From positions 56,015,109 to 56,079,108 of the forward strand of contig NW_027184085.1 in assembly GCF_041296385.1 (NCBI RefSeq): a DNA stretch of 64,000 bases, given 5' to 3'. Made by a program: the position numbers and the translations under genes. Numbering within the stretch: position 1 is the first letter of the stretch; each line of letters starts with the position of its first letter. The stretch comes from Aphelocoma coerulescens. Lineage: Eukaryota > Chordata > Aves > Passeriformes > Corvidae. This document shows positions 15,906-58,259 of the stretch, in pieces. The notes beneath the pieces are model-generated. The model saw nothing but the letters and a program-made list of their open reading frames with translations, had not been told where the DNA came from and made no database searches.

Positions 15906-16478
15906 TGCTGGTTTTGTTTATGTAGAGTTAATCTTCTTCATGGTAGCTAGTACAGGGCTATGTTTTGGACTTTTGCTGAAAGCAGTGTTGATTATACAGG
16001 AATGTTTTCATTACTGCTGAGCAGGGCTTGCACAGAGCCAAGGCCTTTTTTGCTCCTCACCCAACCCCGCCAGTGACCAGGCTGGGAGTGCACAAGTAGC
16101 TGGGAGGGAACACAGCCATGACAGCTGACCCCAGCAGACCGAAGGGATATTCCAGACCATATGGTTCATATGTAGCATATAAAGCTGTGGGGACAAGAAA
16201 GAAGGAAAGAGGAGGGAATATTTGTAGTGATGGCGTTTGTCTTCCCAAGCAAGCATTACATATGATGGGGCCCTGCTCTCCTGGAGATGGCTGAACACCT
16301 GCCTGCCATGGGAAGCACAGAATTAATTCCTAGTTTTGCTTTGGTTTCCCTATTAAACTGTCTTCATCTCAACCTGTGAGTTTTCTCACTTTTAATCTTC
16401 TGATTCTCTCCCCAGTCCCAGTGAGGTGAGTGAGTGGCTGTGTGGTACTTGGTTGTCGGCTTGAGATAAATCATGACA
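15906..16478 (+). mobile_element. ERVL-type 3' LTR
   Basis: A 573-bp LTR that begins TGCTGGTTTTG and ends AATCATGACA. It has a TATA-type 'catataaagctg' near 16176-16187 and a polyadenylation-type ATTAAA in 'ccctattaaactgtcttc' near 16350. It is homologous over its whole length to the LTR at 2981-3573, in inverted orientation. The preceding internal sequence and purine-rich tract show that it is the 3' LTR of a partial provirus rather than a solo LTR. Flanks taaag and tggga do not match, as expected when the 5' end of the provirus has been lost. Confidence 0.8.
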
Positions 16479-31480: not shown

Positions 31481-31698
31481 TAAACTGTAGCTGATGTTTC
31501 AAACAGATGATTGGAGAGGATGTTGTCAGCGTAAGTGGATTTTTCCTTCTGTCTAATAGGGGTGACCTGCTAGTACTCTCCCCTACAAAAAAACTCTATT
31601 TTCCCTTGCAGCACTCTACAGGACAGCAAGCAAAAATGCTATGCTTGTGTTAGTCCAAACCCTGACAATGCTGCTTCTTCTGCCATGATCTAAAGCTC
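31481..31698. other. Junction between LINE relic and env relic
   Basis: About 220 bases that may hold the decayed upstream part of the env relic. Short Cys- and Pro-containing peptides are visible in two frames near 31640-31690, but no continuous frame can be supported. Confidence 0.3.
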
Positions 31699-32316
31699 AT
31701 GTTAGGTGCACCTGGAGTGTTGGAACACACTCTGATTGCAGAAATTGAAATCTTTCTGCCACTATCAATACTAACCAATATCTCTGCAATTAAATCTACC
31801 TGCTCATCATTGCTGAATACGTGTTATACAGGATGGTTAGCCTGGATACATGGACAAACTCTGTCCTGTCCAAAATTATCAAGGAGAGATGTTTTGACAG
31901 TATATAATGCTTCAGTATACAGTATATACCCTGTAATTGTGCTGGGAAAAAATCACTATAGAAATGTCCTCTATCCATTAGTACATAGATTATGGGCCCA
32001 ACTAAATGGGAGCGAATGACAAACTGTTGGTGTTGATGCAGGGGTTGAATGTGAACAACAGGGATTTATTGGTGAAAATAGTACCATTAAGTCCCAAGAC
32101 ATTTGTCTTGACACTGAGCAATGTTTTTGTCACTTTGAAATACATCCTGATGAAACCCCTGAGACTGTAGTTTTATATATTGGAAATGGATGTGTTTATA
32201 TGAAAACCTTTTGTGATTCTATATTTACAGATAGCACCACTGTAGAAACATGTATTCACCGAAATATCCGTAATTGCAATCTTACTGAAATTGTGGGATG
32301 TGACTGTAACTGTTGA
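31699..32316 (+). pseudogene. Retroviral env relic (surface to transmembrane ectodomain part), class shared with the provirus at 62 kb
   Basis: One frame runs for 206 codons with a single internal stop (TGA at 32017-32019). It is Cys-rich with several N-glycosylation-type sites (NIS, NAS, NGS, NST, NLT). Around 32090-32210 it reads ICLDTEQ, then CHFEIH, then GNGCV, which lines up with ICLDTDQ, CHFEVH and GKGCV in the env of the provirus at 62098-62191. That places it in the same env family. It then continues with a Cys-rich stretch (CIHRN, CNLTE, CDCNC) that the provirus copy lacks. Weaker env-like sequence continues in other frames to 32560, where an LTR interrupts it. There is no gag or pol upstream. 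It belongs to an older insertion and is not expected to make a protein, although the frame is unusually well preserved. Confidence 0.75.
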
Positions 32317-32560
32317 GCTCCTGTCACAATCTACCAATAGCTACAATCTAACTATAGATTGTTTCAAATGTTCCTGCCTATCCCCATTGGAATGAAACTT
32401 ACATTTGTAAGAATACTGTTGCAATATGATCGCTTGAGTACATTGCTCAGAAGAATCCAGAACAGCAGAGTATTCTGATTAACATCTATCTTCACAAAAT
32501 GAAGATACATCACATCCTAGAAAGACTGAAAAGGGATGGGGAAAATAACTGGTGAGACAT
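32317..32560 (+). pseudogene. Continuation of env relic up to the LTR insertion
   Basis: After the stop at 32314-32316 the same frame continues with further stops. It shows a hydrophobic PIPIGM-like block near 32380, and at 32547-32558 an N-W-stop-D codon series that aligns with HWWD just before the membrane segment of the provirus env (62239-62250). The segment ends in GACAT (32556-32560), the first copy of the target-site duplication of the inserted LTR. Confidence 0.55.
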
Positions 32561-33841
32561 TGTCATAGGTTAGCAAGCATAGTCCCGGAAGGGATATCCT
32601 TGCTAAGGGGTGCTTACAGCTTCCTCTGGGACCTGATAGAACCTATCAGCTGGCCAGTTTGAATATGGACAATTCTTTAAGCCACTTAAAGTTGTGACTG
32701 CCTCTGTGATACACACTTAAGAACAGACAAACTCCCCCCCCAAGCTCTCTCTCGTTTCCGGCGCTGGGACAGGTGGCTGCAGGCCCCGTGCAGGGGCCAG
32801 TGGGCCACGGCCAGCCTGGAGCCATGGGCCTGTTCCAGCCATGGAACCCCCCCCACTGCCTTGCCGTGGGCAGCCGGAGCGGCTCGGAACCCCCCCCCTC
32901 TCCACTGCGGCCGAGATTCAGCAAAGCGGCACCTCTGTCCGGCAGAGGTCAGGGGACCAACAGCAATAAGCCACATTCCAGCTGTAAGGCCGAGGTGAGA
33001 TTAACCCTTTTATTGCTGTGAAGAGCTGAAAACCTGAGGGAAGAGAGAGAGGAGATGCTTAAAGCTGAAAGTCTGTTGTGAAGCTATGATATATCAGAGT
33101 ATCCTGTTGTAATTTCATGAAGATATGGGGGGTGGAGTGTTCAACTCATAAGCAGAAGCACCTGCGCTGAGATAGGCAAATGCTGACGCAGCTGTAATTT
33201 CATGAGAAGTTTGGACAGAGAGAGATGAACCAGATGAGGACTTTTTGCTCCAAAGAGGAAAGGAGAAAAACCTCAATTCCTAGAGATGCTTCCAGAGATA
33301 GTTTTAAAGATGAAGATGACCCTTTGCTCCCAGGGAAGGAGAAGGGCCTCTGTTTTTCTTTGTTTCTGAACAGCTCAACCTTAAAATTGTACCCCAGAAA
33401 ACTTTCAAGAGTGGACCTTCGAAAGCAGTTGCGGGAAAAGCTGCAAGTCGGGGGAAGGGACTCACATCGCAAGCAGAGAGACTCCTCTTCCTAAATGGAC
33501 TGAACAATATTTGGAAGTGGGTGGCTGTCTCGGTGTGATACTGTTTTCATAGCATGAGCAAAAAGAGACTTCTCTTTCTAAATGGACTGAACAAGGTTAT
33601 TCTGGAAGTGGTAAACAGACTGAACATCTTAAGGGTTGTCTTTACACTGTCAGTGGGAGAAGGGAGGAAGGTGGGGGGAGGAGGAGAGTTCTAAAGGTGG
33701 TATAATTTTTTTCTTTTCTTCTTTTAGGTCTGTTAATAAACTTCTTTATATTCATTCAAGTTGGTGCCTGCTTTGCATTTCTCCTAATTCTTATCTCACA
33801 GAAGATAAACAGCAATGAGTATTTTAGACCAAACCACTACA
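32561..33841 (+). mobile_element. Solo LTR, 1281 bp, with GACAT target-site duplication
   Basis: It starts TGTCATAGGTTAGC and ends CCAAACCACTACA, so it has canonical TG...CA ends. GACAT immediately precedes it (32556-32560) and immediately follows it (33842-33846), a perfect 5-bp target-site duplication, and no internal retroviral sequence is present. It contains a GC- and CpG-rich segment (about 32750-32960), two 31-bp repeats with two mismatches (33477-33507 and 33564-33594), a TATA-like 'ggtataattttttt' near 33698-33711, and an AATAAA at 33735-33740. Open frames inside it (for example 32646-32976 and 33200-33507) lie on both strands and are products of its GC-rich composition. It resembles a widespread songbird LTR family. 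The 5-bp duplication fits an ERVL or class I element, but I cannot name the family firmly. Confidence 0.9.
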
Positions 33842-33950
33842 GACATCAGCGACAAGAACTGTGAGTCTAATGTTTCATTCAATTGTGATTTTGTTAGCTC
33901 TAACATTATGCTTATTACTTAAAGTAATTTTATATGCAAACGTCTGGTAA
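33842..33950 (+). pseudogene. Env relic, membrane-anchor segment downstream of the solo LTR
   Basis: Directly after the second GACAT copy, the frame starting at 33843 is open for 35 codons to a TAA at 33948-33950. It encodes a strongly hydrophobic stretch (HSIVILLALTLCLLL) followed by KVILYANVW. Position and character match the membrane anchor of the provirus env, where HPIIVLLILV is followed by a second hydrophobic run. The env relic therefore continues on the far side of the LTR, which shows that the LTR inserted into the env gene. A frame change separates it from the part upstream of the LTR. Confidence 0.65.
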
Positions 33951-34208
33951 ATCATGAAGCAAATGCTCCTTATTCATTATGATGAATTCCCTTATTATAT
34001 AATTAATAGTAATATTTTATATTAAGAGCTATTTGCTTACTTTGGATCTGCAAGTGTGCAAACATAGTATATAATTAACATTAATTTTGGTACTTAAACT
34101 AAACAGTTTATCAAGTAACTGGACTCTTACCACTGATCTGTCACATATTTACAGTATAGAGGCAAGAGGTAGCTGTACTATGCCTGTATGAATCAATAAA
34201 GTAGATTA
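33951..34208. other. AT-rich DNA after env relic
   Basis: No recognisable feature. If the relic was once a full provirus, this would be its env end and the untranslated run-up to a 3' LTR. Confidence 0.35.
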
Positions 34209-34715
34209 ACTGTATTTGTGGGGTGATGTGCGACTTGTGGGCTCCACTCCTTAATCAAACTCACAATAGCTGGTACAGGCTCCAAAGGCAGCTCCTGAGT
34301 GGCAGGTGGGCCAAGAAAGCCTCAAAGAAACCTAAAAAGGAGCACAGTGACCTTATGAACACCAATGGATATGAGATTGGAATGCCAATCGAACAGTTAA
34401 GGGGTGGTTTTTCCAAGATTCCTTTATCAAGAAACAAATAAATTTGTGGGTACAGGGAGTTTTACGCACACCCTTCCTATTGTATGCAATTTGACCATGA
34501 GCCAAACACTTTATCCCATAAATAAAATGACCTAAGTGAGCCTTCTTTGAGCTCTCCTTGCTGGTCAGTGCAGCTGCATGGTGGTGGTCTCTCCTGGAGC
34601 TGGGGTGCCTCTCAAGGTTGCTCCTCAAGGCAGAGAGACCTTTTGCCAATGAGATATCTTTGGGTGAGCCCAGTCTGAGTTCTCTCTAACTTGCAACTGG
34701 ACTGCACACCACGTG
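34209..34715 (+). mobile_element. Possible LTR remnant following the env relic
   Basis: Composition changes from AT-rich to mixed at about 34.2 kb and back after about 34.7 kb. The stretch opens with TGTATTTGTGGGG and has an AATAAA at 34522-34527 followed by a GC-richer part ('gagctctccttgctggtc', 'ggtctctcctggagctgggg') that looks like the R/U5 part of an LTR. It lies where the 3' LTR of the env relic's provirus would be. I could not find clean TG/CA ends, a target-site duplication or a second copy in this window. It does not resemble the LTRs at 53.9 and 62.5 kb. It may instead be an unrelated repeat. Open frames here (34223-34441 plus, 34353-34649 minus) are not recognised. Confidence 0.3.
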
Positions 34716-37260
34716 ACTCTCCACTTTAGCCTCAGAACAAAAGAGATGAGGAAAAAGAAATACATTTCAGGCTGCATCTTATCTGTTGTCACTGGGTGAC
34801 TGAATGGCACTGGCCTGGGAGAGAACAGACTTCTTCAGTAGTTTTGTGGGGGTTTTTTGTGCCTGAAAACCACCCTAGAATTTTACAGCATGGGCCAGGT
34901 AATAAAATACCCAATGAAACTGAATTCTGAAATCATGGACTCTTCAGCAACTGGGAAATCAGGTAAAAAACAAATGAAATGTCTTGGAAATAACTCTTTG
35001 AACTGAACAGAAGGTCATAATTTCACTTTACAGCTGCACACATGAATGAGTAAACAGTTAATTTAGATCAGTAGCATGCCACTGAATTTAAGGGCAGTAC
35101 TGCACAGAGCAGTCTGTAGGAGTCAAGTATTATGTTTTTCAACAAGCTACCTCATTAAGTTTATTGAAAAGACATATTGGGAACATACCTTAAAAACTCC
35201 TGCAATGGAGATATTTGGTTTGCCCTAAGAATGAGATTAATTTCATGCTTTTAGTTATATGTTCTCATAATCTGTCACTGTGCTGCATCTAGTATGTTAA
35301 AATTCATATTACAAGCTCCGTAGGATTTTTGTGTTGTAGGCCTATATACTTGTTATGTTCCCTAAAACATGAATCCTTGTTTGTCCTTTTGCAGCCATAT
35401 GAAATAATGCCACAAATCCATCTCTGTAATGATCTCCAAATACCAAGGCCCTATTTTCTTTGCATGAACAATAAAACAACCTGAAAAGAAAACTACAACA
35501 TCTTTTTTTTTTTGTGCTTGATTATAATAAGAAAAACTTGGCTATATTAAGAGCATGGGTGTTCTGAGCTGAGATGAAAAAAATATGGTTGGTTTGAGCC
35601 TCTCCTGAGTCCCTGGGAAACATCTCAATGATGAAAATTTAATGCATTTTTTTTCCAAAAGGATGTGTGCTGATGCTCTTTTCTTCTCTTCCAGGGCTTT
35701 TGAACAGCTGTACAGGTCTATGATAAATGAAGGTCTATTTATTTAATTGCTGTATTACTTGTCAAAGTAACTTAAAGGAAAAAAAGTTACTCTAAGACAA
35801 ACAGGATAAGACTAAATTGCTTAAAGTGATGTGATTTTTGAAAAGTGCTACACTTGCAACGGGCTTTATGAAAACCTTCAAACACGCATGTAAACATTTC
35901 TGTTTCTTGGAAAAAAGTGAAAGTACACTTTCCTACATTTGTTATACCTTTCATATTTCTTTCATATAAGGTATATTGGAAGTAAAGTAACTTTATTTTT
36001 CTGGGATTTTTTCCAGATAGACAGTATAATTTTTTTAAAATCTATATTAACAGTTTTCTTTTGACTTTCTGATTAATTGCTCAATGATTTCACGGAAGTT
36101 TGAAATCTTTCACATACATCTACAATGAGAGAAAGACTCTCTGTAAGTATAGACACAACTGTGTTGCAACACAGATCTTTTTGCTGCCCAGTGAGTCCAG
36201 AGAGGTAGTATCTTCAGGTCAGTGCTTACAATACCCAGATTTAGAAATTGCCACCTCATTCAGGTGTCAGAGTTGACATCAGCAGTATTGTTTTCTTCCC
36301 ATGGACAGTTGAAGGACCTATGCTCCTTAACGAGGTCTATGAAGTTAATTATAAATTTACATATTGTGGTAGTCATATAATAATGAAAGTTATAAAATGG
36401 ATTTGGTCCATGTGAGGTACTATAGCTGCTCCTGAAATTTCAGCCATGGTACAGCTTAATATGCTGTGAATGCTAAGACAGAAATTCATGAAAAGGCTGA
36501 GGAAAATACAGCTAATGTGACATGTTTTAAAAGGGCTAATAAAAGGCAGTGGCATTACTGCTGAGCTTAAAATTCAATGCTCCTTAAATCTCATTATCTT
36601 CAGGTAATGAAGAATATAGGAAAAATTGAAATTTCAGTTAATACTATCCAAGAGTTTGTGGAGCTGTCTATGAGTGTAACTTGCATTTTATTTAAAATAC
36701 TGAGGGAGTATTAATTTTTTTCCTGCAAACTGGTGCTAAATTAAAATTCATTCTACTGTGTGCTTGGTGCTTCACTGAAAATGGCTGGCCATGTCCCAGC
36801 AAGTTTACAGAGAAATCAATGAAACAAAAGTGTTGGGAGGAATATTGTTTTCTACAAGTGTGAAACTACTCTACAAAAGGGTAAGACTATTTCCATAAAT
36901 TTTGGAAATCTCTGTCCTCCCTGTCCCAGATGGAATTCATATATTCCCAGGGCTGAATTTACAGGTCTGAACTCCATTCTAATGCTTGGAATTCTTTCTC
37001 TTTGGCCCACCATATTAAAATTTGGTTGAAGAAATGAAAAAAGTAATTCCTTAAACCAAGACAAATTTCCCTTTGGGACAATTTGACTGTGTGTAATCCA
37101 TCATGTTCCCTGTCTTTCAGAGAAACCATCTAAATAAAGAAGCCTGGACTTTAGAAAGTTAAAGTATTTAGAGGTCCAATGAAATGTAAAGAAATAAGTA
37201 TCTAAAAAAGGTCCTAAAAACATTCAGAAAATTACTGCAGAACCTAAAATTAGACAAAAA

Positions 37261-37299
37261 ACAGAGGGAAGAGGAAGAAGAAGGATGATGATGAAGATG
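37261..37299 (+). repeat. GA/GAT-rich simple tract
   Basis: Purine-rich run of GGAA, GAAGAA and GATGATGAT words. It is a simple-sequence repeat; the minus-strand frame across it is an artefact. Confidence 0.6.
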
Positions 37300-37681
37300 T
37301 AACAAGAAAAACTTGTTTGTGATGTTTCTGTTGGTACATATACATGGATGTTGCAAGGCCTGTTACTTTTATGTTAGTAGTGGGTTTTTCCCCTAGAATT
37401 TCTTAATCAAAAGAAAAATTTCTCTGATGGGGATGCTGGGGCAAAACTTTTCTGCAGCCACAAAATGTCTAATTTTTAGGAGGATAGGTTCCTTGTAAGT
37501 GTTCTTTGAAAGCAAGTTTTAATTTGACTTGTCTCCAGGGTTTTTGCATGCAAAGCAGCATTGTGATCACCACTGCCTTTCAGAGAAAGCTCCTCCAGAA
37601 ACCAAAGTGGATGTTTTGAAGAAAGAATGTATTATAAGTCCATTGTTGGAAAAGATGTTAAATTTCAAAATCTACTGAGGA

Positions 37682-37805
37682 TTTTTTTTTTTTTTGGGGG
37701 AGTGTGTGTGTGTTAGTTTTGGTTTGGTTTTTCTCTTTGGTTTGGTTTGGGTTTTTTTGCTTGACTTTGTTGGTTTTAATTTTTGTTATTTATTTGTTTT
37801 TCCTA
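37682..37805 (+). repeat. T/G-rich low-complexity tract
   Basis: A T14 run, then GGGGGAGTGTGTGTGTG, then repeated GGTTT words and TTTGTT words. A similar shorter T/G-rich tract occurs at 38321-38363 and a smaller one at 41262-41290. Confidence 0.7.
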
Positions 37806-38320
37806 AATAAACTTTTAGTGAAAATATTTCAAACAATTTTAATGGATTTTCTTTTGTTTGTTTGTTTCTTTAAATTATTGCCTGACTGATTCCTTCCAGA
37901 AGGTGATTTATTATGGAATAGGACGTCAATGTCTCTGCAAGTACATGACTGATTGTTTTCCTCTCCAACTGTTGTGCCGTAACAACAGGTTTAATGATGC
38001 CATTTAATTTAGAGTTATTGTGCCACGCAAGTTTAACAAGCCCATTTGCTTGTGGCAGGGAGAACATTGCTTTCATCAGATCTCTAAAATATATATTGCA
38101 TCAAAGAACTGTAATTAATCTCTGCCTTTGGTTCTGGATCATCAAAAGCGTACATTAAGTCTATGGGATCCAAAGAAAATCTAGTTTCAGTTTACTGAGG
38201 TCAGTTAAAATTAATCCTATTCCAATGCTTTGTTATCCCCAGGAAATTTTCATCTCCATTTATTCTGGAATGGAAAGTTAAATTTATATGTGTTTTTAGG
38301 AGATTCTGATCCATCCCATT

Positions 38321-38363
38321 TGTTTGGGTTTTTTGGGGGGATTTTTTGGTTTTTTTTTTCTTT
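38321..38363 (+). repeat. T/G-rich low-complexity tract
   Basis: Runs of T and G (TTTGGGTTTTTTGGGGGG-type words, then T10). Simple sequence with no other signature. Confidence 0.6.
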
Positions 38364-40729
38364 GTCTTGTGGATATGTTATATAGTGCTTGTTACAGCAA
38401 CCATGTAAGGGAAGTATCTGCGCTATGGAGATTTGGGTGCTGGATGTGGTTGGTTCAATCCTTGCTTTACATTGGTCCTGTGAACGTAATGGGTGGTCTG
38501 GAATGAAATTCACACTCATTTTATTCTCAAGACTTACCTGAGAGCATATGTCATGCAAAAGTGGCAGTCATGAAACAGGTTTGCATATTGACAACTGCAG
38601 CACTTAAGTTTAAATAGTCATTGTATTCTAGTTGCATCTTTAAATCATTACCTAAAGATGCATTTATAAAATATTCAATTAGAAGACATGTAATATACAC
38701 TTATCATGAACTGCATGAATTCTAAAATTATGTGTAGTTTATATGTTAAAAAATGTAATCTTTTAAATCAGAATAGTTATACAATGAGGTGTAACATTTG
38801 CACATTTTGGTATTTTGACTTACAGAACAGATTAACACCAGATCTGTGTAAATTACTATGACAGGATATGTCTATAGCTGAAATGTTGCTTTTGTGTACT
38901 TTATGTTATTCACTGTAAACCTCCTAATTGCTAGCTGAAAAGCTTTTGTGACAACATCCTTTACTCTTAAGATAAATTGGGGTTCTGATATTTAAAGTAG
39001 AATAAGTATAAAACAAGCTTTTGCACAACACACATCTTCCTGAGAAACCCCTTATAGCTGTTTCCCATAAAATCAATTCCTGTACAAATGCAACTGTAGA
39101 ATATCTGTGCAGTGTGTATCTCTCCAGGTAAAAGGAAACCCCATGTTTTCCAGATTTTTTTAAGTGTCTATAAATATGTCATGATGTACAATTGCCTGCT
39201 TCAAATACTGAAATTCTCATGGGCACGGGGATTCTGAGGGGTGGCCACTTGGGCGTTTGTCATTAATGAAGAGTACTGCCTATAAACAGAGAAGTGAAGA
39301 ATGGATGTATTGAGGGCTCTGCCATGCAATTGTTTTCGTACCTCATTTACATCCACAAGGATTCCATCTTAAGGATCTTAGTGGGACAACAGATCTGAGG
39401 ATTTCTCTGCTCCTCAGCTGCCCACAGGAGCTGATCAATGTGTAAGCCTTCAGTAACATTTTCGAGGTGATTGTGTCACCTATGAATATTTTTTTAAATT
39501 TCACTTTCAGATGCTTTACTTTGAAAACAATATTACATTTGTGGACTGCGGACAACATCAATGTGATATTTATTTATGCTTCCCACCCAATAAGTCTACC
39601 ACATCATAAAACCTTTATTGCCTAAGTACAAATGCATCAATAATTGAATGCCAGAAAAGGAAAAGGGGGCTAGAGTTTCAGCTATTAATATCAGAGGAGT
39701 TGAGTGTTGTGTAAAGAAGCATATCTCTCTTATATATGGCTTGTGCCTATCACAGTTCTAAAACTGGGATTTGACAACTTTTATCAATACTGGCATTAAA
39801 TAACTGAGCATAAAATTTAGTCATTAGTAAATGAAACCGTGAAACCTGTAATATTTTATGTTCTAGATGTTTTTCCCTCTGGAATATAACTTACCTGGTT
39901 CTGTTTGCTGTAACATATGATGCTCTCTTCCCCAAATTAATTTTTTTTAGGGAGATTTAATAATTTAACTCCTTTTCTCTAGTTATATGCATTTTGATAC
40001 TTTTGTGGTTAAAAATTTCATCTTTGTTGCACTAAGAGCCTTTTTCATTACATTTGGTGGAAGCCATTGAGCTTCAATTCCTAAAGTGTTCTTCAGAATT
40101 GCAAACCATACAAGTTTCAAGTGTCATCTTGCCTGACAACAGTGTTTTAAAATGTTTGTGGGTTCTTCGCTGCCCTGTCCTCTCTTCACTTAAGGGATAT
40201 CATCTTGCACTTCATCTTGTGCACTTCAGTGTGAACTGGACACCTGGCAACCATTACTGGTATCATACATTTTAAACATTTTATTTCTTCTGTTATGACA
40301 TGCAGTTTGCCTGAGTTTTCAGAATTTCTCCAGAAGGACTGTTGCCTCAATCACTTAGAAAAGTTGATATGAACTGCCTTTAGCAGAACTATACATCTTT
40401 TTGTAGCAAAGCCACACTGGTTTGGAAATGCACCATCTAAGAAGTAACATGAGTAAGCTCAGATTTACCCTCTCAGTGCTGGTAGAGAATAAAATTAGCA
40501 TGACTCTATTTGTGTTTATCCATGTCCCCTTGGCATTACTGAAATTACATAATATCATTCAGATGTATACAAGCAGAACATAGAGAGAAACAGGCAAACA
40601 GCAAAATGACAGTGTTGTGTTTTATCAAGGCTCCATGGTGTACCCAGATGCTACACTCTTTTTATTGTTTACTTTGCTCATTATTTTACTGCCCCCATCC
40701 CCTTCAATTTAAAATCCTGATTTCTGTAG

Positions 40730-40744
40730 AAAAAAAAAAAAAAA
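40730..40744 (+). repeat. Poly-A tract (15 A)
   Basis: Uninterrupted run of 15 A. No recognisable retroposed sequence precedes it, so I do not call it a processed-pseudogene tail. Confidence 0.6.
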
Positions 40745-43700
40745 GATTTTTGGTTATTAATGGTCTGTGGTTTGAGCTTTTCTGTGCCTCTATTATATCA
40801 AGGACCATAGTAGTGAGGAAAACGCATTCTTACCCATCACTTCTGCTTAATCATTGAGACCTTGATCTATCTTTCTCTTTGTTTATCACATGCACCTGTC
40901 CTCATTAGAGCAGATTGGAGTCAGGGGTGCTGAAATCTGACTTTTTATCTGTACCAGCTATCTTACATGCCAACTTCACATCGTAGCATTTGAGATCCCA
41001 CTGTGTAAACTCATGAGGTAAAAGAAAAACCTGCATTATTATAGTTTAAGGTTTCTATAAGCACCTATAGAGAGTATTTTCTTGTACTCGAGTGTACAGG
41101 CATTCTGAAGTAACAGACAAAGAAAACACCTTAAATATAATGAAATACTTATCCACCAGTAAATGACACACAAAGCTGAGCCATTTGGGAACAGAATGAT
41201 TACCTGTGTAAAACTAATAAAAAACAGCCTATGTGTTCACCTTGAAGTGTTAATTCCATTTTGTTTTGTTTTGTTGTTTTTTTTTTTCAATTCCTTATGA
41301 AGATTTATTAACAGTCAATCACTCTTGGTGCCAGACTCTGATAAGCTCTTGTCCACACTGTAGTGAATTCAGATGATCAGTGGAATAAATTATAGTTTGA
41401 TTTTCATTCTCTGAGCAGCTCAGTATTTTGTGGGAAGATTTACAGCGAAATGGTTATATAAGAAAATTTAGCAGTCTCATGAATGCAAAGCTAAGCTCCA
41501 CAGGGTGATATTAAATATGTTTTGTAGGGTGAGCTGCTAGGGAAACCCTGCTTTTGAGGAAAGAGAGATTGGTTGTGTTGAATTATGGCATCAAAAAATT
41601 TCTTTTAATGATCAGGAATAGTGATAGAAAAGCTGTAGCTGTGTTTCCTAGAGTGCCTTTGGAGATCACCAGCAAATGGTCTCTAAAAAATTGTCCGCAT
41701 CTCTTTTCCTGTTACTTTGTTTCAGGGTCTCTTTGTACACTGACTCCATTCTAACAGCTAAAGGTATCAGCAAAACTTTCCTAGGTCCTCTGTGATGAAG
41801 AAAGGACTAAGATTGAGTATACTTGTTACATACAAAATTACAGATAAAAACCAATTTCCAAATACAAATAAGCATGTGGAGTCATGTCTCTGTGCCTTGT
41901 CAAGGATCTTTTTAGTGCCTATTAAATCATCTTTCTCTTTCAACTGTGTTGTAATTATAAATAGGTTCACAATGAATTCTCAATTCTGCACATGTAAATC
42001 ATGCCACATATCATTATCTGATAGAGCTGAGTAAGGCTGCTGGGGCACTAAAATATCAGGCCAGGCAGTCAGCTGTATCTCTTAGCAATAACTGCTGTGT
42101 GTTACGAACTAACAGGGAGACAATAAATGAAAAATTTGAAACTTCTCTGAAACCTGGAGCAATACCAAAGATGACTAATGACTTGCTTGAAGTAAAATGC
42201 AGAAAAGAGTGAAAGAGGAAAAAAGAAATCTCAATAAAGGGGTAAAACATCCATTTAATTGTAGACAAAATGTATTTATGACTGACACGTTTACTCCTTC
42301 TTGAGATGCCTAATTTTAATATTACTTTTCTCCATTACTCTTACATGACTCCTTTTAAGAAGATGCAGCTTTAAGGGCTGAATTCAGTATGTTTTATCAC
42401 TAAAGAAGTAGTAGCTGATGAGATTTATTTGTGATAAATTTCCCTTGTGGAGGGTAGCATGCTGGTAAGGGGAAAACCTCCTTGTGTGCCTGGTAACCAA
42501 TGCAGTTTGGTGCAGTTTGTCCCTAAAGGTCAGAACACACATGCTTCCTACCTGCTCATTGACAATATAGACTGTTTTACAATAGCCTTCTTTTTAAAAT
42601 TGAAATGAATTTACTGCTCAATAGAAAAGCCGTGTAGACAACTTTTTTCTTGTTGCAGCCCCTTTTTGTTCGTTATGGGCTGCGAAACAACAAGCTTCTT
42701 TGATACTTTTCTGTGAGATTACTTTTCTTCCCTAGCACTCAAAAAATATAAGTGTGTAGCAACTGAATTAATGTTCCTTTATTCAGAAGGAAAAGCTAAC
42801 TGATTGGAGTTTATAGAAAAATAATTTTCATTTCGTTTGAGTGTTGCTTTATATGCCCAAATTGTGTTTTAATTAACTGTGACATAGATTTAGCTGCTAA
42901 AATTTATTCAGATGAGGTGCAGCATACAATGAAAATGGCAGAATTGAGTGTAACACTATGCTTTTCTATTTTTCCCCTCCCCCAGATTTCCCCTAACTAT
43001 TGTGTTCTTCAATGAAACCAATATTAGGGAGGAAAAAAATCAAGACAGAAGTGAGCTTTTCCATGTCGAGAAAAATATTGTTGATTCTGCTGGCAGAGTA
43101 ATTCACCAGCTCATTTCCATCAGCTTTTATTTCACGGCAATTGTAAAATAAACCACTCGTAGCACATGCTGTTAATCTCTAGTCCCTGGGGTGTAACTGC
43201 TGTTACACAGTATGGGTCATGTGCTAGCTAAAGTGTGCATTTAAAAGGTAGAAATTAATAGTAGTGGATCTGATTCCAACCTAAATGGTATTCAATGGGC
43301 AAGGTAATTCCCTTTATGTCCGCCACCAATAGATTGTCGTGCGTGTTTCTTTTTTTATTCCTGATCTCCTCCATTAACAGAGGAAAAAGCAAAAAAATCC
43401 AGTATCACAGCAAAGTCTAAGGAAAATTCATTCAGGAAAAAGCCTGTGTGCTTATTGTGATGTTCATCTGCCCTCAGTTTCCTTCTTCCCCAGCTCATCT
43501 TGTGCAACTGCAAAAATTTACCGCTAGTGTTAATATGTCAGAATTATATTTCCTATGGGGTTAGTTACGTCACTTAACTTCTTTTCCCAGTTTCAAAACT
43601 TTGGCATAAGATTAGATGTCTATTCAGTGGCTCTCTAATAAAGTGCTCTGCAAGGAAGAATATCCGGGTTTTTTTCTTTCTATAAAATTGTCCACCTATA

Positions 43701-44510
43701 AAATAAGTATTGAACCACTATTAAAAACATACAGGTTACAGAAACTTTTATAGTACTGGATTCTTATTCCATTTTTTTACAATAATCCCCTAATTTTAAG
43801 GTGTAATTAAACCCTTGACAAGAGAAAAACTGCAAAGTAGGAAATAGAGACAAAAATATGTCCACAGAACTGCTATTCTCATTGCATATGTATAAATAAA
43901 TTAAAACTCGAATCTGGGTTTGGAGCACATTGAGAGTCTCAGTAGCACTATGCATATCTTTGAGGATATTGTGGTCTCAGGGATTTGTATTTTGTTATGA
44001 GAATATATTCAAACTTCCTTTCCCAAAGCGTGAAACATCCAATCTAGTTCTTAGTGAAGCAAGTAGCAAAACTGGCATTGATTTCCATGTGGGAAAGGGA
44101 AGATTGGTCCCCAAATGAATCTACCACTTAATGCTAGTTTTATGTATTGTAATACAGGATAAAATGTTCTGAATAAAATAACTCTCTCCTTCTTGCCTAC
44201 TGCACACCTCATGGTACTGCTGAGTTGGCATGTAAAGAAGGAGTGATAAAGAGGAATAATCAGCTACTAGCCTACATTTACATTGACAAAAGCAGACTAT
44301 TTCCCTCCTGAGGCAGAGGAGGCAGCAAGGAAAAATGTGTAGTTCTTAACTATACTGTTTCAGCAGCTGCTCTGTCTCTCTGCAAGGAAGATTAAGTCAT
44401 CATGAACTATTATCTATTACACTCTATAAGGAGTGATTGTTAAAGAACAATAGAGAACTTCAGATGGAAAACCTCCTAAAACAACCATTAAATCCTAAAT
44501 TTGTAATAAC

Positions 44511-44528
44511 TTTTTTTTTTTTTTTTTT
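44511..44528 (+). repeat. Poly-T tract (18 T)
   Basis: Uninterrupted run of 18 T. It could be the tail of a minus-strand insertion, but the sequence following it (44529 on) is not recognisable. Confidence 0.6.
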
Positions 44529-47179
44529 GGCCTGGTCTGTAATAGAATTTCATTGCCATGCCTTTCTACAGATTATTAGTTTAAGCATGGTGCCTCCTTG
44601 ATAAATAGATACATTATGTGTAGTAATGTGCATTTAGGTTTTACTTTGTAGCTTTTTCATTCTGCATTAAAAATAAGGTACCTGGAAGGAAATAATTCTG
44701 ATATAGAATATTCCATATTCTTTAATATTGGAAATACACTGTCCTCTCCCTTTTCTCTAGTGAATTATCATTGTTACAGAGCTGCCTCTAAAAAATACCA
44801 AAATAATGGAAATTTATCATCTTAAATCTTATCACCATAACAGTGTTCTTCTTGTTATTTCTTAAATCCTATAGGAAAAGTATCTAGAATATTATTACTA
44901 CATTCATATACTGCTATCAAACACTTGAATAAATAGGTTGAGAGAAAAGAGATACTTTATATTTAGCAGAAGAATGTATTAGTTATAAATTTTTCAAGTG
45001 TTGAGTGTTTTCAGCAACTTGAAGAAGGTCTGTGATTTTATTGTGCATGTGTTTGACATCTTGCTGTCATTTTTCAGTTGACCTGCTTGACTTAAACAGG
45101 ACTCACGCAATTCAACAGCAATGTTTTATAAGTACAAAGATGTTTGATTTCTCATAAAACACTTTTGACCTCTACATCTATTCTGAGTAGGTCTTTTTCT
45201 TTAATATGCAGGCTCTGTTTCTGTATGACTGGAGAAATGTCAATGTTTCTTGACCTGAGAGAAGCCTTCTAAGACGATTTGTCCTTTTAAGGCAATTGTG
45301 TAACTAAGAATTCACACAGCTGTTTTTGCAGGACTGTGTCAGACCAAGGTTATAGAAACTTGCTTGTGTTTGGATATTACATAAATATGTCTTTAAAAAC
45401 CTTGATTATCATGAGATTGAAGGTCAAACTGTGGTACTTCACTCCATTGTGCTGGTCTTTTCAAGTCAGTGTACAAGTAAAGAATCACAGTATGAGGGGA
45501 GTGTGCATGTAAATGAAATATATCTGCTTTCCCACCACTGGTCTTTGTCTTGGCTTAAATGCTGAATTGTATGAACAGCTGTAACCTCTTGCTAGTTGGA
45601 CTGAATTTATTGGGATTTCCAGGTGTTTGGCTTTTCATAGGAGTTAGAACTTTTAAAAAAAGTATTTTCTAATGAAGTTGAATATAGGGAGGGCAGAAGA
45701 AAGCAAGGGTACTAAAATGTCACTTGGAGAGGTTTACTATTGAAATCAAATACTTGAAATCTGTTTCTTCAGCATTATAGAGATGCTTTACCTAAAGAGT
45801 CCTTTGTTCCAAGGGCTCTGTATCAAGTTACTCACACCATGAGTCTGAGGTGTCAACTGGCACCAATCCACAGGCAAAACATTCACCAGAGGGAAGAGTT
45901 CAAAAGGCCAGTTCTGCTTTCCTCCTGTGGTATGATGCTTTCTAATGTATCTCTCTACTTAAAGACAGAGTGCTTTCAAGATCAAACCAGTAGTGGCAGA
46001 GATGAAAAGATACTTTCTGTTCTAAATGTATTCTGTATTTCTGGCAACAGCACTTGAAATATTCAGATATCTCATTTCAGTATTATTTGGTTAAAGAAAC
46101 CCAGCTGCCAGACCAGCGGGTATGGTCACACAGTCCATGGTGACGGAGAATACAGGAAGTGGAGAAAAATATCACTATTATGTATTTGGCATCCAGAAAT
46201 TTATAGTGTACTTCTTGTACTGTGCATGTTCTGTTACTCATTGGTGATTACATTTAGCTCAATATAGGGTTTTGAATAAGAACTGATTTCTCCATATTTT
46301 TTTCAAAGAATAACAAAATGTGAATTCCATATGAATTCCATATTTGACAATTAAAGTCCTCAGTGTTATACTTTCCAATTACAACATTTTTAAGTGAATG
46401 CTTTATTTTGTGCAAGGTCTACTCAAATGTTTGCTGGATTAGTAGTGGATATCAAGCATATTTCAGTGTAAATTTTTCCATAGCCTTTGTATTTATGTTT
46501 GTTTTTATTTTTTTTCGTTTTGAAAAGAAACCCCTTCATTTATGTTTTTAATACCTTGATTAGAAGACTTAGAAGAAAATTGGAAATCATACCATAAACA
46601 ATCTGGGCTGTGATATGAAGAACACAGCGGAGATGTAGTAAAGAATGGAGATGTAAAATCTTGATGGAGAGTAAAGAATGAGACAAATCGTTCAAACTTT
46701 TTTTTCTTGCTGTATTCTTTGATGTTCCTAAATCCTTCCCACCATTAATACACATTAGGCTTCATCTAATTTCTTTATTAGGCTTGTAATTGTTTTTCTA
46801 ATAAAAAAAGTCATTTATGTTTAGCAAGTGACGAGTGATAAATAATAATGTTGATAAAGACTAATTTGGAATCTGCTTCGGACTCTTACTCTGTTTATGT
46901 ACATGAACGTCATTTTCAAGCACCATCCTTGCTATGTTAGGGTAACTGTGTGTCGTTATCTTTTCTAGAAGAAAGAAGTGCTCCTCAAAACCGAAACAAA
47001 CCAAACAAAAAAGAAAAAACCAAACCAAACCCCCCTCATTTTCTTGCTTGTGCGCATCATTTGTCCACCAAGACAGTGTTAACTTTTTAGTACTGAAATC
47101 AGTCCATCATAAAATGAGCTCTACTGATTACAAGGTTCAGACTCTAGAAGGATTGTTTCTGCTAAACCCTATTATACTC

Positions 47180-47183
<4 letters not shown>

Positions 47184-47212
<29 letters not shown>
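47184..47212 (+). repeat. Poly-A tract (29 A)
   Basis: The longest homopolymer in the window, 29 A, followed by a G/A-rich GAAAGAAGAAAAAG run. I could not recognise a retroposed gene upstream. CR1 and TguSINE-type elements do not end in poly-A, so this is either simple expansion or the tail of a rare processed copy. Confidence 0.65.
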
Positions 47213-47214
<2 letters not shown>

Positions 47215-48425
47215 AAGAAGAAAAAGCTCAGGTATATATAAATAATGCATATTGTACAAGCTTCAGAGGCAGCATCACTGAGTTGATTTGTCAGTTGAAC
47301 ACATCTGACACAATTTTTTTTAAAATGTTGTTAGAGAATGTGACTTATGTTATTAATCCTTTATCTTCTTCTGCCAACTCCCTTAACAAAAAACTGCTGT
47401 TTCTGAGCATGTTTGAAATTGCTAGCATCACATGCTAACACAAGTGGTGCCTAAGAACATCAGATGGTAAATCCAAGCATATTAATTACATCATTAAAAT
47501 AACATTTGGTATACCACTGAGATACATTACAATAACAATAACCTTCATGTGTAATAAGATGCACAGCCAGCACATAATGTGAGAGCTATGTACAACAGAG
47601 ATTCTATTCTATCCTTGCATGGGGTAATTGAATTGACTTGGAAATAAGAAAGAACGCACTGCCTTAAAACTAGCACTGTCCTGCTTTTTATATATGTCTC
47701 TCTGTATATAAGGGGGTGAGTGCATTTGTGTCTGAAAATTGTCACACTCTGAAGGCCAGATAAACTTCTCCAGAGAAGTCAGAGTTGCTTGGTTGCATCT
47801 GTTGAAAACAGTCTGTGCTGTGTATGAGAGCTCATGTCAGTACAGTAATTACCATAGCTGAGATAAAGCCTGTGCTAAATGTCATTTTCAGCTGACAAAC
47901 ACATGTAACCAAGCACCACTAAATGATTCAGTTGTTCTGAGAGTGCTTAGCTCTATGTCTGGGGTAAAATAATTTGTCCTGACTGCAAAATAAATAAACA
48001 AATGCAAAACAAGAATAGAAAGAAACAGCTTAGAGCAGAGGATGGAAAAAAGTCAGTTAATGTACCTAATCAAGCGGAGAGAGAAGTTTGAGAAAGATCT
48101 AGTAGCAATTCCTAACAATTATACTAAACACTTTTTCTTCTGCTACAAATTGTTTAAAGGTCATCAGAATGCAAATTTCCACCCTATTAGCAAGTAGCCA
48201 GAAGAATGTTGCTCCTTAAATTGATAGCAATCTAAATATGCTAACAGCAGCATTTTTTAACAGATTGCCCAAAGATGAGTCATGCACATATTACAAAGAG
48301 TGGAGTGTTGAGAAGTTTTACATCATTGCTAAAATATTCCTAACTGGAGAAAAGAAAAAAGGAAGTAGTTTTCCAAAGCCTTTTGCATTAAAAATAACCA
48401 GTTTTTAAAAATGTAAGAAAAATTA

Positions 48426-48443
48426 GGGGAGGGGGGCAGGGGG
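48426..48443 (+). repeat. G-rich run
   Basis: Runs of four, six and five G separated by A or CA. A weak quadruplex candidate, otherwise simple sequence. Confidence 0.4.
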
Positions 48444-49687
48444 AAGTCAGGTGGCTTTCCTCACAACAAGAAACTGTTTAACTGCAAGCAACACTTTTTC
48501 TCACTGGAAAAATGTTAGATAATTCCCATTGAGCTAGAAAAAGGTTTATTGACTTCAAAAGGTCACTGATGCCAGGTGACATTTACTGAATATTTTATGA
48601 TGCAGGAGAGGAATGTGGTGTAACTGCCTCTGAAATACAGTCACAAGCTGAGAAGTTACTCTAGCTCATGACACAGTGTGATACAGCTCAGAGAACTGAG
48701 CTTGGCTTCCAAAACTAGAGTAAAGGGACTAATACAATGTCATGTTAAAGGTAAAATGTCCTTCCTCCCCACTGTTTGTGCTCTGTTCTTCATCTAGGTG
48801 TGATCCACAGTGATTAAAGCTGGGAAATGTGATGTGTGTATCATCTGTGGGACTTCCTGCATTGTACTTCCAGACCCCTGGCAGAAGCCTAAACTCAGCA
48901 TCCATTGTATTTTATTTAATGTCTTTGAAATCTGGGCTTTAATTATTTTCTTTTTCAGCTTTATTGTAGAAAGGAGAAAAAGTCCTGCTTTTCATTCACC
49001 TTCCTATATAATAGGTAGGACAGGAGGTGTTCTTCCTCTCTGAAGACTTTACAGTATATTTCTTTCAAACACCTTGCCATTTGCAGTCCCTGAGTGCTGA
49101 CTCTCATGTAAAAATAATACCATGCTGTTACACCAGGAAGGGTACTGGAGCTGAACGGTGTGCTGTGAGTACCAGGAGAACTTCAGCAATGACAGAATGT
49201 AGGGAAAAAGACAAGAACATGCAATAAAGGCAAGAACAAGAAATATGAGAATCTAAGGTAGAAGGTAGTTAAAACCTCTTTCTAAATGTCTCTCTTTGTC
49301 CTTCTAAACATTTTGTATGTTGATGAAGGCAGAATGAATGAATTGCAACTTGTGTCACTCATCTTTTCTATCAGTGAGATATAGATATGTATAAATAATT
49401 TATAGTAAATATATGATGTGATGATTAACTGAATTAAAAATTTACCTCAAATTTTACCTGTATGCAAATCCAACCTGGAATGGAGAAGATCAAGAACACA
49501 AAACACATGAAAGATTACAGGATTATACTTTAAAACAGTTTGTTTTAAAGCAGTTTGCAGTTACAAGTATTTGTTTGTAGACAAGACTACATTATTATTT
49601 TTTAGACCATGTTGTTTTTGTCAAGCGTATCAGATATGAATAATTGTAAAATAATAAATTTTCAAATCTCTTTTTACTCATGTAAAC

Positions 49688-49812
49688 TAATCCCTCTAAT
49701 CATCTTCATATCCTGTCCATGGACTTGCTCCAACAGGTGAATGTCCGTCCTGTTCTGGGGACCCCAGAGCAGTACTCCAGGTGGGTCTCACAAGACTGGG
49801 GTTCTTCCCCTG
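49688..49812 (-). mobile_element. CR1 LINE fragment, minus orientation
   Basis: Read on the minus strand this corresponds to the well-conserved 3' coding part of CR1 ORF2: 'gagacccacctggagtact', then 'ctctggggtccccagaacag', then 'gacggacattcacctgttgg', then 'atgaagatgatt'. The encoded blocks (LVRP, then LEYC-like and RVQRRATKM-like remnants) are broken by small deletions. Only about 125 bp is recognisable, with neither the diagnostic 3' tail nor the RT core. The minus-strand frame at 49696-49905 partly overlaps it. Confidence 0.75.
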
Positions 49813-52800
49813 ATGCTCTATGGATGGTTTTCTGTAGGCATGAAAGTAGAATTTCAGATTATGCTGGTAGATAGGATGATGATGATGTAGCTCAGTTCCT
49901 GTCATGAGAAACAGAGGCTTGCAAGTGTGCCATTGTCTTATGACAGCTTAACAGGTCATTGGGGGCACTGCTGGCAAGCTTTTGCTGGAATGTGAAAAGA
50001 AGCACAAGCATCTGCCCTGCCAGTAGCATCAGGAGTGGGAGAAAAAAGAGGACAATGTGGATTGACATTTCCTTGGATCACATTTGTACTCTGCAAAGCC
50101 ATTTCTGTGCTTCTGCAGTACATGCTGACTAGTGAGAAAAGATTGAGCTAGAGGGTTTTGCTGACCAGTACTGGCTGAAAAATATGGTGATGGAAAGTGA
50201 CACTTTTCTGGGATGTGTGCAGAGCTTGGCTCCTGTGACAGAACTTTGACAGCAGAGGGGTTTTTTGTTCAAATTTTTTACCCAGATGATTAATTGTAGG
50301 TAGGCTCTGCTATCAAAATAATGTTTCATGACCAAGGAGTGATGAGGGTTAGTCATAGATTTGCATGCAGAATGAGACTTAGGGAAACATTTTCAATCCT
50401 TCTGCAGTGGGCCTTGTGTTGAATGGGTAGAACGAAACATTTCAGCGCAATATTTCAGTGTTGACAGGTTTTCAAGACACAAAGATATGAAAAGACGTGT
50501 TATACCTGGGGAACTGAGAACTTTAAATGTATTTAAATACTGGACAGCTAAAGAGAGACTATCTTTCATTAGCAATAACCATGAACTCCAGCAGGACTGA
50601 AACTTTTCTTTTTGTATGCGTCCTTGGTTATCATATCCAACTATATGTGGGCTTGGAATGATGATTTTGCCTGATATGATATGATAGTAAGGTTAGGGAC
50701 TCTTTTATTTTACAAGTGCATGGCATCTTGCACAATACCTAAAGTAATCTGTCTGAGATTATAAATGTACAAGCATTTTCTAATTATATGAAAGTAGCTG
50801 GTAAAACAACACATGCAAGAAATGCATTCTGCTGTCATGTGGCCAGGTTAATTTTGTATTTTTATTTCAAGATTAAAAAACTTCTATGCTAAAACAAAAA
50901 TCAATTAATTTCTGAAGATTGTATGTGGTCTTATGTACAGGCATTCAGAAGTACAAAAATATTTTGTGACATTACCTAAAATATAAATGGAATTTAATAA
51001 TTCACTAGTGCTCATATAATTATCCCGCAATATTTCATACAACATTCAAAAAACTCGTGAAATCATATTGCCCCTTATGAAATATTTATGAAATTGTAGT
51101 ATTTTTGGAAACTGTCCTTCCTCATTTAAGAAGCATGGTTTTCATAAAGTTACACTTTCCTTTAATCATGTTTTAGATAATTTAATAATATTTTTTAAAA
51201 AATAGTTTTACTTTTTAAAATAGGAGGGGAAATTGTGTCAAGTTCTGTGATATTTCAATTAGCAACAAGAGAAGTGCGGAAACAGAGCTCAATACACCAA
51301 AGTAGTGCTGTGAGGCCAATCACCAAGAAGTAATGACTGCCCAACTCTCTTCTAACAGGGCACTGTGCAACTTTTTTTACTATCAATTTACAATTGTGTA
51401 TCAATTCAGTCTCTCAGACTTGCCTATTGCCTGACTGCAAACTGTGAAGTAGTTTTGTGCACTCAAGCTCTTTAGAGATAAGAACAACTGTGCTCCAGCA
51501 CATTTTCAAGTAAAAACCTCTGTCTGCTCATGAGCTTTGCATTTCCTGGTTCTTTTTTTAGTTTACAGTGAAGCCCGGTCCTTCCCCTTGTCAGTCCAGG
51601 GTATCTCTTTTTTTTTGTGAAGACTGCTCAGAGTTTTCTGAAGATATCTTCTTTTCTTCTTCTTTTTTTTTTCTTTACCCTCTTCTGTTGCATTTTCCAG
51701 GCACCAAGAGATAGATAAAGCTCCAATCCTTAAAAGCTAGTCAGCCCAATTGCATTGAATCTGGGAGGTGAGGAGAGGAGCAGGCAATTACTGGGTTTTG
51801 TTCAGTTGCCATGGTACCAAATGGAAAACATATTCCATTTCAGTTCGAGATCCTGTCGTTTGAGACTCTTCCCAGTGTTGGCAAGTGATAGCCTATACCT
51901 TGGAGACCCTTCTCTTTTATTTCCTGTGGTTCTGGGAGGATTTGCTCGTTATCAGTGTACAGTGGTATGTGATTGCTTTGCAAGTCTGAGGATCGGGATG
52001 TTGTACGTGGCTTTGAGAGAACACGGGGAGTCAGTGGAGAGTGGAGGGTGAGGGATAAAGAGGACCTGCGAGAACTACTTGGAGAGGAGTAGGTTAGCAG
52101 TAGTACCAGCACCACTGGTGCTTGCTACACTGGACTCCTTTACCAGTATGGAAAAATAAATGTGTCCATTTGTGAAAGCAGAGGCCAGCCTGGAGAGCCT
52201 GGAAACACATTAACAACGTTATTTCTGATGAGACAATAACCAGAACACTTCCCTGTGAGATGTGACACAATTGAAGGAAAATAGCTCCCTGTGCAGGAAT
52301 GAGACGGAGCAGTCTGGCCTTCGAACATTAGATCTCAAATAGAACATTTTTTGATTGTCAAGTTTGCTTTATATCCATTGTAAATGTGTAAAAAGCTCAC
52401 TGTGAATATTTTACAAAGATTATTTGTAATTTTCAGCAACAGTCTGAGTTTATCATCTCACTGGTGGCATATTATCCCTATGCAGCTTCACGTGACACAC
52501 GTTTATCCTGAGAAAATATTTCCTCAGAGGAATTGTTTTCTCTTCTGCCGTACTTCTGTCCATAAGACACATCAATAAAATAATAAAGGTAATAAAATCT
52601 CTTCCAGTATTTTAAGACATAGCTTAACTCTCCATTGTCCCAAAACACAGCTAAACAAATACAAACCTGGTGCTTTAAAATTTTGGCTTTTTACAGTATT
52701 ATTGCTCAGACACTGAGATATTCTTATGTAGATACTGTACAGCTCACTTGTTACTTGATATTGCTCTGACAAGCACTAGTATGGGATAAACTACATAAAT

Positions 52801-53850
52801 ATTATGAATGTGTGTCATGGCATTTTTTCAAATTTCACTTGTAGATTTGGACTAGTAATGATCAAAAGACAGCTAGAGTAGGTGGTAGCCTGGAGGACAA
52901 TGGTGTTCACACACACTTTCAAAGAAACCATGTACTTTATAATTTTTCCTCCTTCTTTCTAGTTCTCAGTTATAATGAGGGTGTGAAATAAAGAATTGGG
53001 GAAAGATAGCTCAGTCTGGTAAATTATTGACAGCTAAATAAATACCTCGTATTGATTACTCTACACTAATTATTAAAACTATTTAGTCACAGTGAAAGTA
53101 GTTTAGGCTGTGGTTTTCCTTCAGGGTTTTCAGATGATGCATGCGCTACAAACATGTGGGCCATTAACCGTTTTATAATTGGAAGAGAACTGATTTACAG
53201 AACAGACCTTTTTACATGAGTCCTTTTCACAGTTTTGCTCCTGAACTGAATACAGTTCTCTGAACTGTGGCAAATATCAGACATCTGAAAAGAGATTCTC
53301 CTGTCATGCTTTGAGTCTGCATAGCCAAGAAATATCTTATTTTACTTTCCTTCAAGATCAATTTCAGTGTCTTCCTTGTTGTTCAGTCCATCCAGGTGTG
53401 ATCTATTTTTACTCTTTATTTGGAGTTTGGTTCACTACATGGTTTATTCTGGTTGTTCATCATGTGCTTCTTGCACATTCACTTGGTGGGGCACAAAGTT
53501 TTGTGACATAAAAACTATTAAGTCAGTTTGTGACTGCAGAGTAGTAGTACGGATGCAACAAGGCTGGCAGGATATAGAATTATGCAGATTCACAGATGAG
53601 TGCAGTGTGAAGCAGAAGTCCTTCTGCATAAACTTTTCTCCTCAGAATTTGATGAACACTACACTTTGCTGATTATCAGAGCATGTATGTCACAGAAATG
53701 TCAAAGCAATGTGTTTAGCCTATGACTAGGTTGCTGTGGTTCACTTCAGAATACACAATAAGATTTGAGAGTTACTGAAAGAGGATAAACCTTAAGTGAA
53801 AAAATTTTGGAGACTCCCATTTTCATTGGTTAGTCCTCAAATCTGAGCCT
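49813..53850. other. Non-coding host DNA upstream of the provirus
   Basis: AT-rich sequence with a pyrimidine-rich run at 51648-51676 (TTC words and T11). No exon, RNA gene or known repeat is recognisable. Overlapping frames near 51755-52115 and 53311-53672 on both strands have no domain. Confidence 0.5.
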
Positions 53851-53854
53851 TTAT
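53851..53854. repeat. Target-site duplication, left copy (TTAT)
   Basis: TTAT immediately precedes the first TG of the 5' LTR and recurs directly after the CA end of the 3' LTR (63249-63252). A 4-bp duplication is usual for gammaretrovirus-like integrases. The match is short, so chance is possible. Confidence 0.6.
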
Positions 53855-54247
53855 TGAAACATAGATTTAGAAGAAACATAAAGATTTTAGTTATAGGCTA
53901 GCTGTGTTGAAATTAGTTAGAATAGGAAGGAATTTGGGCTCAGCTAGAGTTAATTAAAATAGTTAAGAGAGCTGGACCTGAAATGGGTTTTAAGGTGTTA
54001 GTAGCTGATTACCAAATTACTGATGATCTGTCATTTGCATGTTTGCTTAGCTGTGCTTAGAATGAGGAGTAGAAACATTGATAAGTCGGTGTAGGGAACA
54101 AGGCCAATTACCAATTTCCTCCCTTGGTGGGAACCCGTTCAAAAGTCATGCAAGAGGAAACTTAGAGGTCACTAAAGTAACTAGGATTGTTAAAGTTCAG
54201 AGAGGCAAAAAGGTCAAAATGAGGAAGATGAGTTACTTCATCTTTTT

Positions 54248-54285: not shown

Positions 54286-54402
54286 AGAACACACACTGCG
54301 CATGCTTAATGACATGTAAGCTCATTTCCATACGAAGCGGAGAACGGGAGGTGTTAATGTTATGAATATGCATTTGTATTTTGGATATTCATAATTTTTG
54401 TA

Positions 54403-58244: not shown

Positions 58245-58259
58245 AATGGGGAAATCAGT

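What the first reader, a model, noticed from the sequence alone, without database searches (positions are those of the whole stretch)
31699..33950. Old env gene split by a solo LTR with a perfect target-site duplication
Seen directly: a 206-codon env-like frame with one stop (31699-32316), further env-like traces to 32560, then a 1281-bp TG...CA element bounded by GACAT on both sides, then a hydrophobic anchor segment in the expected place (33843-33950). The LTR therefore landed inside an already resident env gene, between the W-x-D landmark and the membrane anchor. This gives a relative order: env insertion, then LTR element. The preserved frame in an old relic with no gag or pol nearby is unusual and could reflect slow decay or past constraint.
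Basis: partly seen in the sequence, partly recalled or inferred. Interest (0 to 1): 0.75.

Follow-up and report, generated by a model that had tools for sequence, protein, structure and literature searches.

The report
Solo LTR inside a decayed env
A broken envelope gene left behind by an old retrovirus was later cut in two by another retroviral element, of which a single terminal repeat remains; this is ordinary genome layering, and no sign was found that the gene had been preserved.

Summary
Env homology runs from about 31840 to 32560 and resumes at 33846-33965. Between lies a 1281-bp TG...CA element (32561-33841) flanked by GACAT. Database relatives reach E = 7.9e-38. A gag-pol provirus about 20 kb downstream has homologous sequence after its integrase, which identifies the gene by position. 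A profile of four database relatives of that provirus's env tail, run on 3471 six-frame peptides, ranked it first, then two left-flank pieces and the right-flank anchor, in env order. No control stretch (1000 simulated, 200 real) reached the anchor's score. The order, env first and LTR second, is well supported.

Unusual preservation is not. Runs of at least 205 codons with one stop arise in 16 of 60 and 19 of 60 simulated 54-kb sequences, although this run is the longest in 1-54000. A cysteine present in eight relatives is lost, and later env has stops and a frame change. No homologue was found for 31699-31839. Orthologues, dN/dS and host could not be tested. This is an ordinary nested solo LTR in an env relic resembling, by description only, OVEX1/TERV.

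The parts
31666..32019 (+). Env-like open frame, first part (117 codons stop to stop plus closing stop codon region); homology shown only from about 31840 on
   Evidence: P0003 84-85% identity, P0007 from 31840; no Pfam match
32020..32022 (+). Internal stop codon inside the env-like frame
32023..32316 (+). Env-like open frame, second part (97 codons plus closing stop)
   Evidence: 8 relatives of 9 candidates, best E 7.9e-38, 75% identity; tblastx of 31500-32560 to the second provirus env, E 9.1e-10; no Pfam or PDB match
32317..32466 (+). Env ectodomain trace, same frame, with stops
   Evidence: P0011 48% over 50 residues, E 2.2e-10; P0012 (32215-32463) E 2.3e-13; profile hit at 32341-32475, E 3.9e-7
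32433..32560 (+). Env ectodomain trace in another frame, ending at the W-x-D landmark
   Evidence: P0011 E 2.4e-6 over 32433-32570, the last 10 bases of which lie in the LTR; profile positions 66-96, E 0.16
32556..32560 (+). Target-site duplication GACAT, left copy
32561..33841 (+). Solo LTR, 1281 bp, TG...CA, with AATAAA (33735) and TATAA (33701); no second copy in the window
33842..33846 (+). Target-site duplication GACAT, right copy
33846..33965 (+). Env membrane-anchor segment
   Evidence: P0011 34% over 41 residues, E 0.003 in the 3.2-kb region, E 0.066 in the whole window; score reached by 0 of 1000 simulated and 0 of 200 real control stretches

Best explanation
This is a decayed env fragment of an endogenous retrovirus, of a kind in which the CX6CC loop was not seen and which resembles, by published description, OVEX1 and TERV env. 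After it had become resident, a second LTR element inserted just past the W-x-D landmark and made a 5-bp target duplication (shown by the interrupted homology and the repeats). Recombination between that element's two LTRs then left one LTR (inferred from general knowledge of LTR elements). Relatives have a few residues between the left and right env matches that have no counterpart here, and counted from the two GACAT copies the matches are in different frames, so env was most simply already broken at the target when the element landed (inferred). No present function is indicated for either piece.
For: Protein relatives on both flanks. Homologous sequence some 490 bp downstream of the integrase ORF of a gag-pol provirus in the same window. 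Colinear ranking of left and right flank pieces in a profile scan of 3471 peptides. Anchor score reached by 0 of 1000 and 0 of 200 controls. TG/CA plus identical 5-bp flanks at the env-defined edges, 46 of 20000 by chance. One AATAAA, and no second LTR copy in the window.
Against: No Pfam env match for the finding's pieces, for three relatives or for the second provirus's own env ORFs, no PDB env match, and no database protein named env; the length rule of the search excludes full-length env proteins. Direct tblastx of the right flank against the second provirus env found nothing convincing (best E 3.0), so the anchor rests on database relatives and position, and its profile E-value alone is 0.34. 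The LTR's family is not named: no other copy was at hand, and one exact 23-base pattern had 0 matches in viral contigs.
Confidence: 0.93

Rival explanations
1. The two flanks are not one env: the left is env-like, the right hydrophobic piece is chance, and the 5-bp repeats are coincidental.
For: The anchor match is weak alone (profile E 0.34; no convincing tblastx match to the second provirus); 823 chance TG..CA pairs with 5-bp repeats of this size range exist in the window.
Against: No control of 1200 reached the anchor's score; it is colinear with the left flank and starts at the repeat; edge fit 46 of 20000.
Confidence: 0.04
2. The env frame was kept by selection (host use of the env) until the LTR or later mutation broke it. 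(Not exclusive of the best explanation's anatomy.)
For: Two relatives (P0001, P0003) share subfamily residues with the window, and P0003 is 85% identical over 114 residues; the run is the longest one-stop run in 1-54000; OVEX1 is reported with homologues in many birds and 207 sites under purifying selection (PMC5006616, passages).
Against: Open run within chance; stops, frame change and a lost cysteine shared by eight relatives. Of 7 differences from P0003, 2 fall in 25 invariant columns and 5 in 30 variable ones, too few for a test.
Confidence: 0.04
3. The 1281-bp element is not a solo LTR but another TG...CA insertion or a non-autonomous element. (Not exclusive of the env part.)
For: No other copy or internal sequence could be examined; an imperfect repeat (33477-33520 / 33564-33611, 87.5%) lies inside.
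Against: Length, TG/CA ends, 5-bp duplication, one AATAAA near the 3' end with TATAA upstream.
Confidence: 0.06

Closest known systems
OVEX1 ORF3 / GGLTR11-int / TERV env of birds (PMC2717909: section 11 read, other passages)
   Same: Env-position gene with a predicted coiled coil and anchor near the C-terminus; that paper says OVEX1 and TERV lack CWLC, CKS17 and CX6CC. CX6CC was found in 0 of 18 pieces here, but only P0011, P0012 and the window's two ectodomain traces cover the part where it would lie.
   Different: OVEX1 keeps long open frames beside gag-pol at one locus; the finding is a broken fragment split by an LTR, with no gag or pol detected beside it. No direct sequence comparison was possible. 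The 2009 paper itself calls the env identity of ORF3 uncertain; PMC5006616 (passages) treats it as a gammaretroviral env.
Env of the second provirus in this window (about 53855-63247)
   Same: The relative P0002 matches both 31951-32226 (67%) and 61955-62218 (41%); direct tblastx E 9.1e-10 in three pieces, the third in another frame.
   Different: That provirus has gag-pol and direct repeats 97.6% identical. Its env is also broken; the ectodomain part of P0012 (residues 3-79) found no match there at E <= 10, while P0012's tail did.
Nested LTR elements in chicken (PMC5006616: seven nested elements, passages) and nested insertions used to order events (PMC2672092, abstract and passages)
   Same: A younger LTR element inside an older retroviral sequence gives a relative order.
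   Different: Nothing of principle.

Membership tests
Retroviral env gene | Homology to a gene located after integrase in a gag-pol provirus | tested here: met
   integrase core and MLV-type integrase C-terminal domain in ORF 60698-61468; env-like homologous segment at 61955-62233
Retroviral env gene | Hydrophobic membrane anchor after a W-x-D landmark | tested here: met
   the two are separated by the LTR. In the relative P0012 the anchor is a predicted helix with block pLDDT 85-88, in a model that is poor overall (mean 47.0)
Gamma-type env | CX6CC loop and CxxC motif | tested here: inconclusive
   CX6CC in 0 of 18 pieces, CxxC in 2 of 18 (P0005; orf1, there upstream of the homologous part); most pieces do not cover the region where the loop would lie
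Gamma-type env | Pfam env family match | tested here: not met
   no env family for the finding's two ORFs, the anchor, P0003, P0006, P0007 or the second provirus's two env ORFs
OVEX1/GGLTR11/TERV env group | Sequence similarity to OVEX1 ORF3, GGLTR11 or TERV | not testable with these tools
   no sequence of theirs was at hand; only the paper's description was read
Solo LTR | TG...CA ends and target-site duplication | tested here: met
Solo LTR | Polyadenylation signal within the repeat | tested here: met
   AATAAA at 33735
Solo LTR | Same sequence as the LTR of a full-length relative | not testable with these tools
   no second copy in the window; 0 exact matches of one 23-base pattern in viral contigs; the host genome tool did not complete
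Co-opted (selected) env | Frame kept beyond chance | tested here: not met
   16 of 60 and 19 of 60 simulations reach 205 codons with one stop
Co-opted (selected) env | dN/dS below 1 among orthologues | not testable with these tools
   no orthologous DNA was reachable

The most novel reading that the evidence does not exclude
P0003 and P0001 are orthologues of this env in other species, and the gene was kept as a host gene in that lineage until shortly before or until the LTR insertion in this species. It would be a lineage-specific loss of a domesticated OVEX1-like env by LTR insertion.
Probability: 0.03. Interest if true: 0.55.

Novelty: new member of a known kind. Interest (0 to 1): 0.15.

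Why it matters
It is a clean example of how the order of two retroviral insertions can be read from one genome: an env relic, then an LTR element. It also marks a locus where related species with and without the LTR could bracket the age of the LTR insertion. It does not point to a new mechanism or to a gene in use.

Tried and rejected
Pfam scans of the finding's two ORFs, the anchor, three relatives and 10 of 35 listed flanking ORFs gave no retroviral match (a few sub-threshold hits to unrelated families). PDB sequence searches gave no env (one weak unrelated hit each). Structure prediction of two fragment alignments gave mean pLDDT 47.0 and 38.0, too poor for a fold search, and none was run. 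Viral-contig scans with three protein queries and one DNA pattern confirmed no relative. Rfam gave no match and tandem repeats bore nothing on the finding. The 'preserved frame' argument was rejected. A count of differences from P0003 was too small to use.

Paper searches. Seen as passages: PMC2717909 (with section 11 in full), PMC5006616, PMC4299795, PMC2672092, PMC4272516. Others were seen only in search listings.

Full report
What is there. Stop to stop it runs 31666-32313, 215 sense codons with one stop. A 1281-bp stretch, 32561-33841, begins TGTCATAGG and ends ACCACTACA, and GACAT stands on both sides at 32556-32560 and 33842-33846.

Is the frame more than chance? By length alone, no. In Markov simulations of 54 kb trained on the rest of the window, a run of at least 205 codons (the length of the named frame) with one stop occurred in 16 of 60 (order 2) and 19 of 60 (order 4) sequences, over six frames. 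Open length is thus no evidence of preservation.

Is it env? Yes, by homology and position. The second half (32023-32313) found 9 candidates in the protein collection, 8 with E <= 10, all at 3.5e-9 or better, best 7.9e-38 at 75% identity. The first half found one, P0003, at 1.2e-24. None carries a name or Pfam domain, and the search's length rule keeps out full-length env proteins. The identity as env comes from the window itself. About 20 kb downstream lies a second provirus with a Gag_p30 match just under Pfam's cut-off (27.1 against 27.4 bits) and RT, RNase H, integrase core and MLV-type integrase C-terminal matches, and direct repeats 53855-54572 / 62533-63247, 97.6% identical. Some 490 bp downstream of its integrase ORF, at 61955-62233, the finding's relatives match it (P0002 E 1.3e-19). 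The finding's left flank matches it directly by tblastx (three linked pieces, one in another frame, E 9.1e-10). The same flank gave nothing better than E 0.061 in 1-31400 and nothing at E <= 1 in 34400-54000. Pfam named no env, for that provirus's env ORFs either. On the left, no relative reaches further up than 31840, so the first 47 codons of the named frame are unsupported.

Does env continue on both sides of the element? The tail ORF of the second provirus (62152-62475) found 4 proteins at E <= 10 among 5 candidates. A profile was built from these four alone and run on all 3471 six-frame peptides of 12 or more residues of the window. It ranked highest the second provirus's tail (E 2.7e-38, expected because that tail found the four), then 32341-32475 (profile 25-65, E 3.9e-7), 32430-32552 (66-96, E 0.16) and 33828-33947 (107-140, E 0.34). 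The last three are in env order on one strand. The third and fourth are weak alone. With tblastn on the 3.2-kb region the third reaches E 2.4e-6 and the anchor E 0.003. Counting matches to the tail part of the profile, the anchor's score (8.4 bits) was reached by 0 of 1000 simulated and 0 of 200 real, half-overlapping 500-bp plus-strand stretches. Against it: tblastx of the right flank directly against the second provirus gave nothing better than E 3.0.

Is the element a solo LTR? TG...CA with 5-bp repeats is common by chance: 823 pairs of 300-2000 bp in this window, six in this neighbourhood. A fit to two given edges within 15 bp each occurred in 46 of 20000 random edge pairs. The element has one AATAAA at 33735 and one TATAA at 33701 and no second copy in the window. 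Its family could not be named. Loss of the internal part by LTR-LTR recombination is the standard explanation and is inferred, not shown.

Order of events. Env homology is interrupted at the repeats, so the env was there first. Relatives have a few residues between the left match (ending in the W-x-D codons, which overlap the left GACAT) and the right match (starting at the right GACAT) that have no counterpart here. Counted from the two GACAT copies, the two matches are in different frames (from the coordinates). As both GACAT copies are intact, this damage most simply predates the LTR; that is an inference from weak end-of-alignment positions.

Constraint. A cysteine present in all eight relatives is lost in the window, and relatives read on at the window's internal stop. 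Of 55 columns shared with P0003 and at least four of six other relatives, 7 differ: 2 of 25 invariant and 5 of 30 variable ones, too few for a test. Nothing found supports past constraint. Orthology of P0001 and P0003 is unknown, as they come without genomic context.

Closest known. OVEX1 and TERV env of birds are described as lacking CWLC, CKS17 and the CX6CC loop (PMC2717909, section 11 read); the same section calls the env identity of OVEX1 ORF3 uncertain, while PMC5006616 treats it as a gammaretroviral env (passages). CX6CC is absent in 18 of 18 pieces here, but only two relatives and the window's two ectodomain traces cover the place where it would lie; CxxC is absent in 16 of 18. This is resemblance by description; sequence membership was not testable. 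Nested LTR elements in chicken are reported (PMC5006616, passages), and nested insertions are used to order events (PMC2672092, passages). Three oscine passerines are reported to carry more ERVs than other birds (PMC4272516, passages), but the host here was not identified.

Verdict. Ordinary nested retroelements, interest 0.15.

Noticed in passing
53855-63247: A second, younger provirus: direct repeats 97.6% identical over 719 columns, gag/pol domains detectable, env broken with part of the ectodomain not detected. I recognised no clear target duplication at the repeat ends by eye.
   Followed up: partly
57693-57762: A run of 23 copies of AGA inside the second provirus's gag-region ORF, read as a long arginine stretch; looks like a microsatellite grown inside a provirus.
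   Followed up: no
3056-3573 and 15906-16400: Two copies of a dispersed repeat in opposite orientation, 73% identical over 524 columns; family not named.
   Followed up: no
31641-31685: A short methionine-led, leucine-rich peptide in another frame just upstream of the env-like frame, signal-peptide-like by eye; not tested.
   Followed up: no
33477-33520 and 33564-33611: An imperfect internal duplication (87.5%) within the solo LTR.
   Followed up: no
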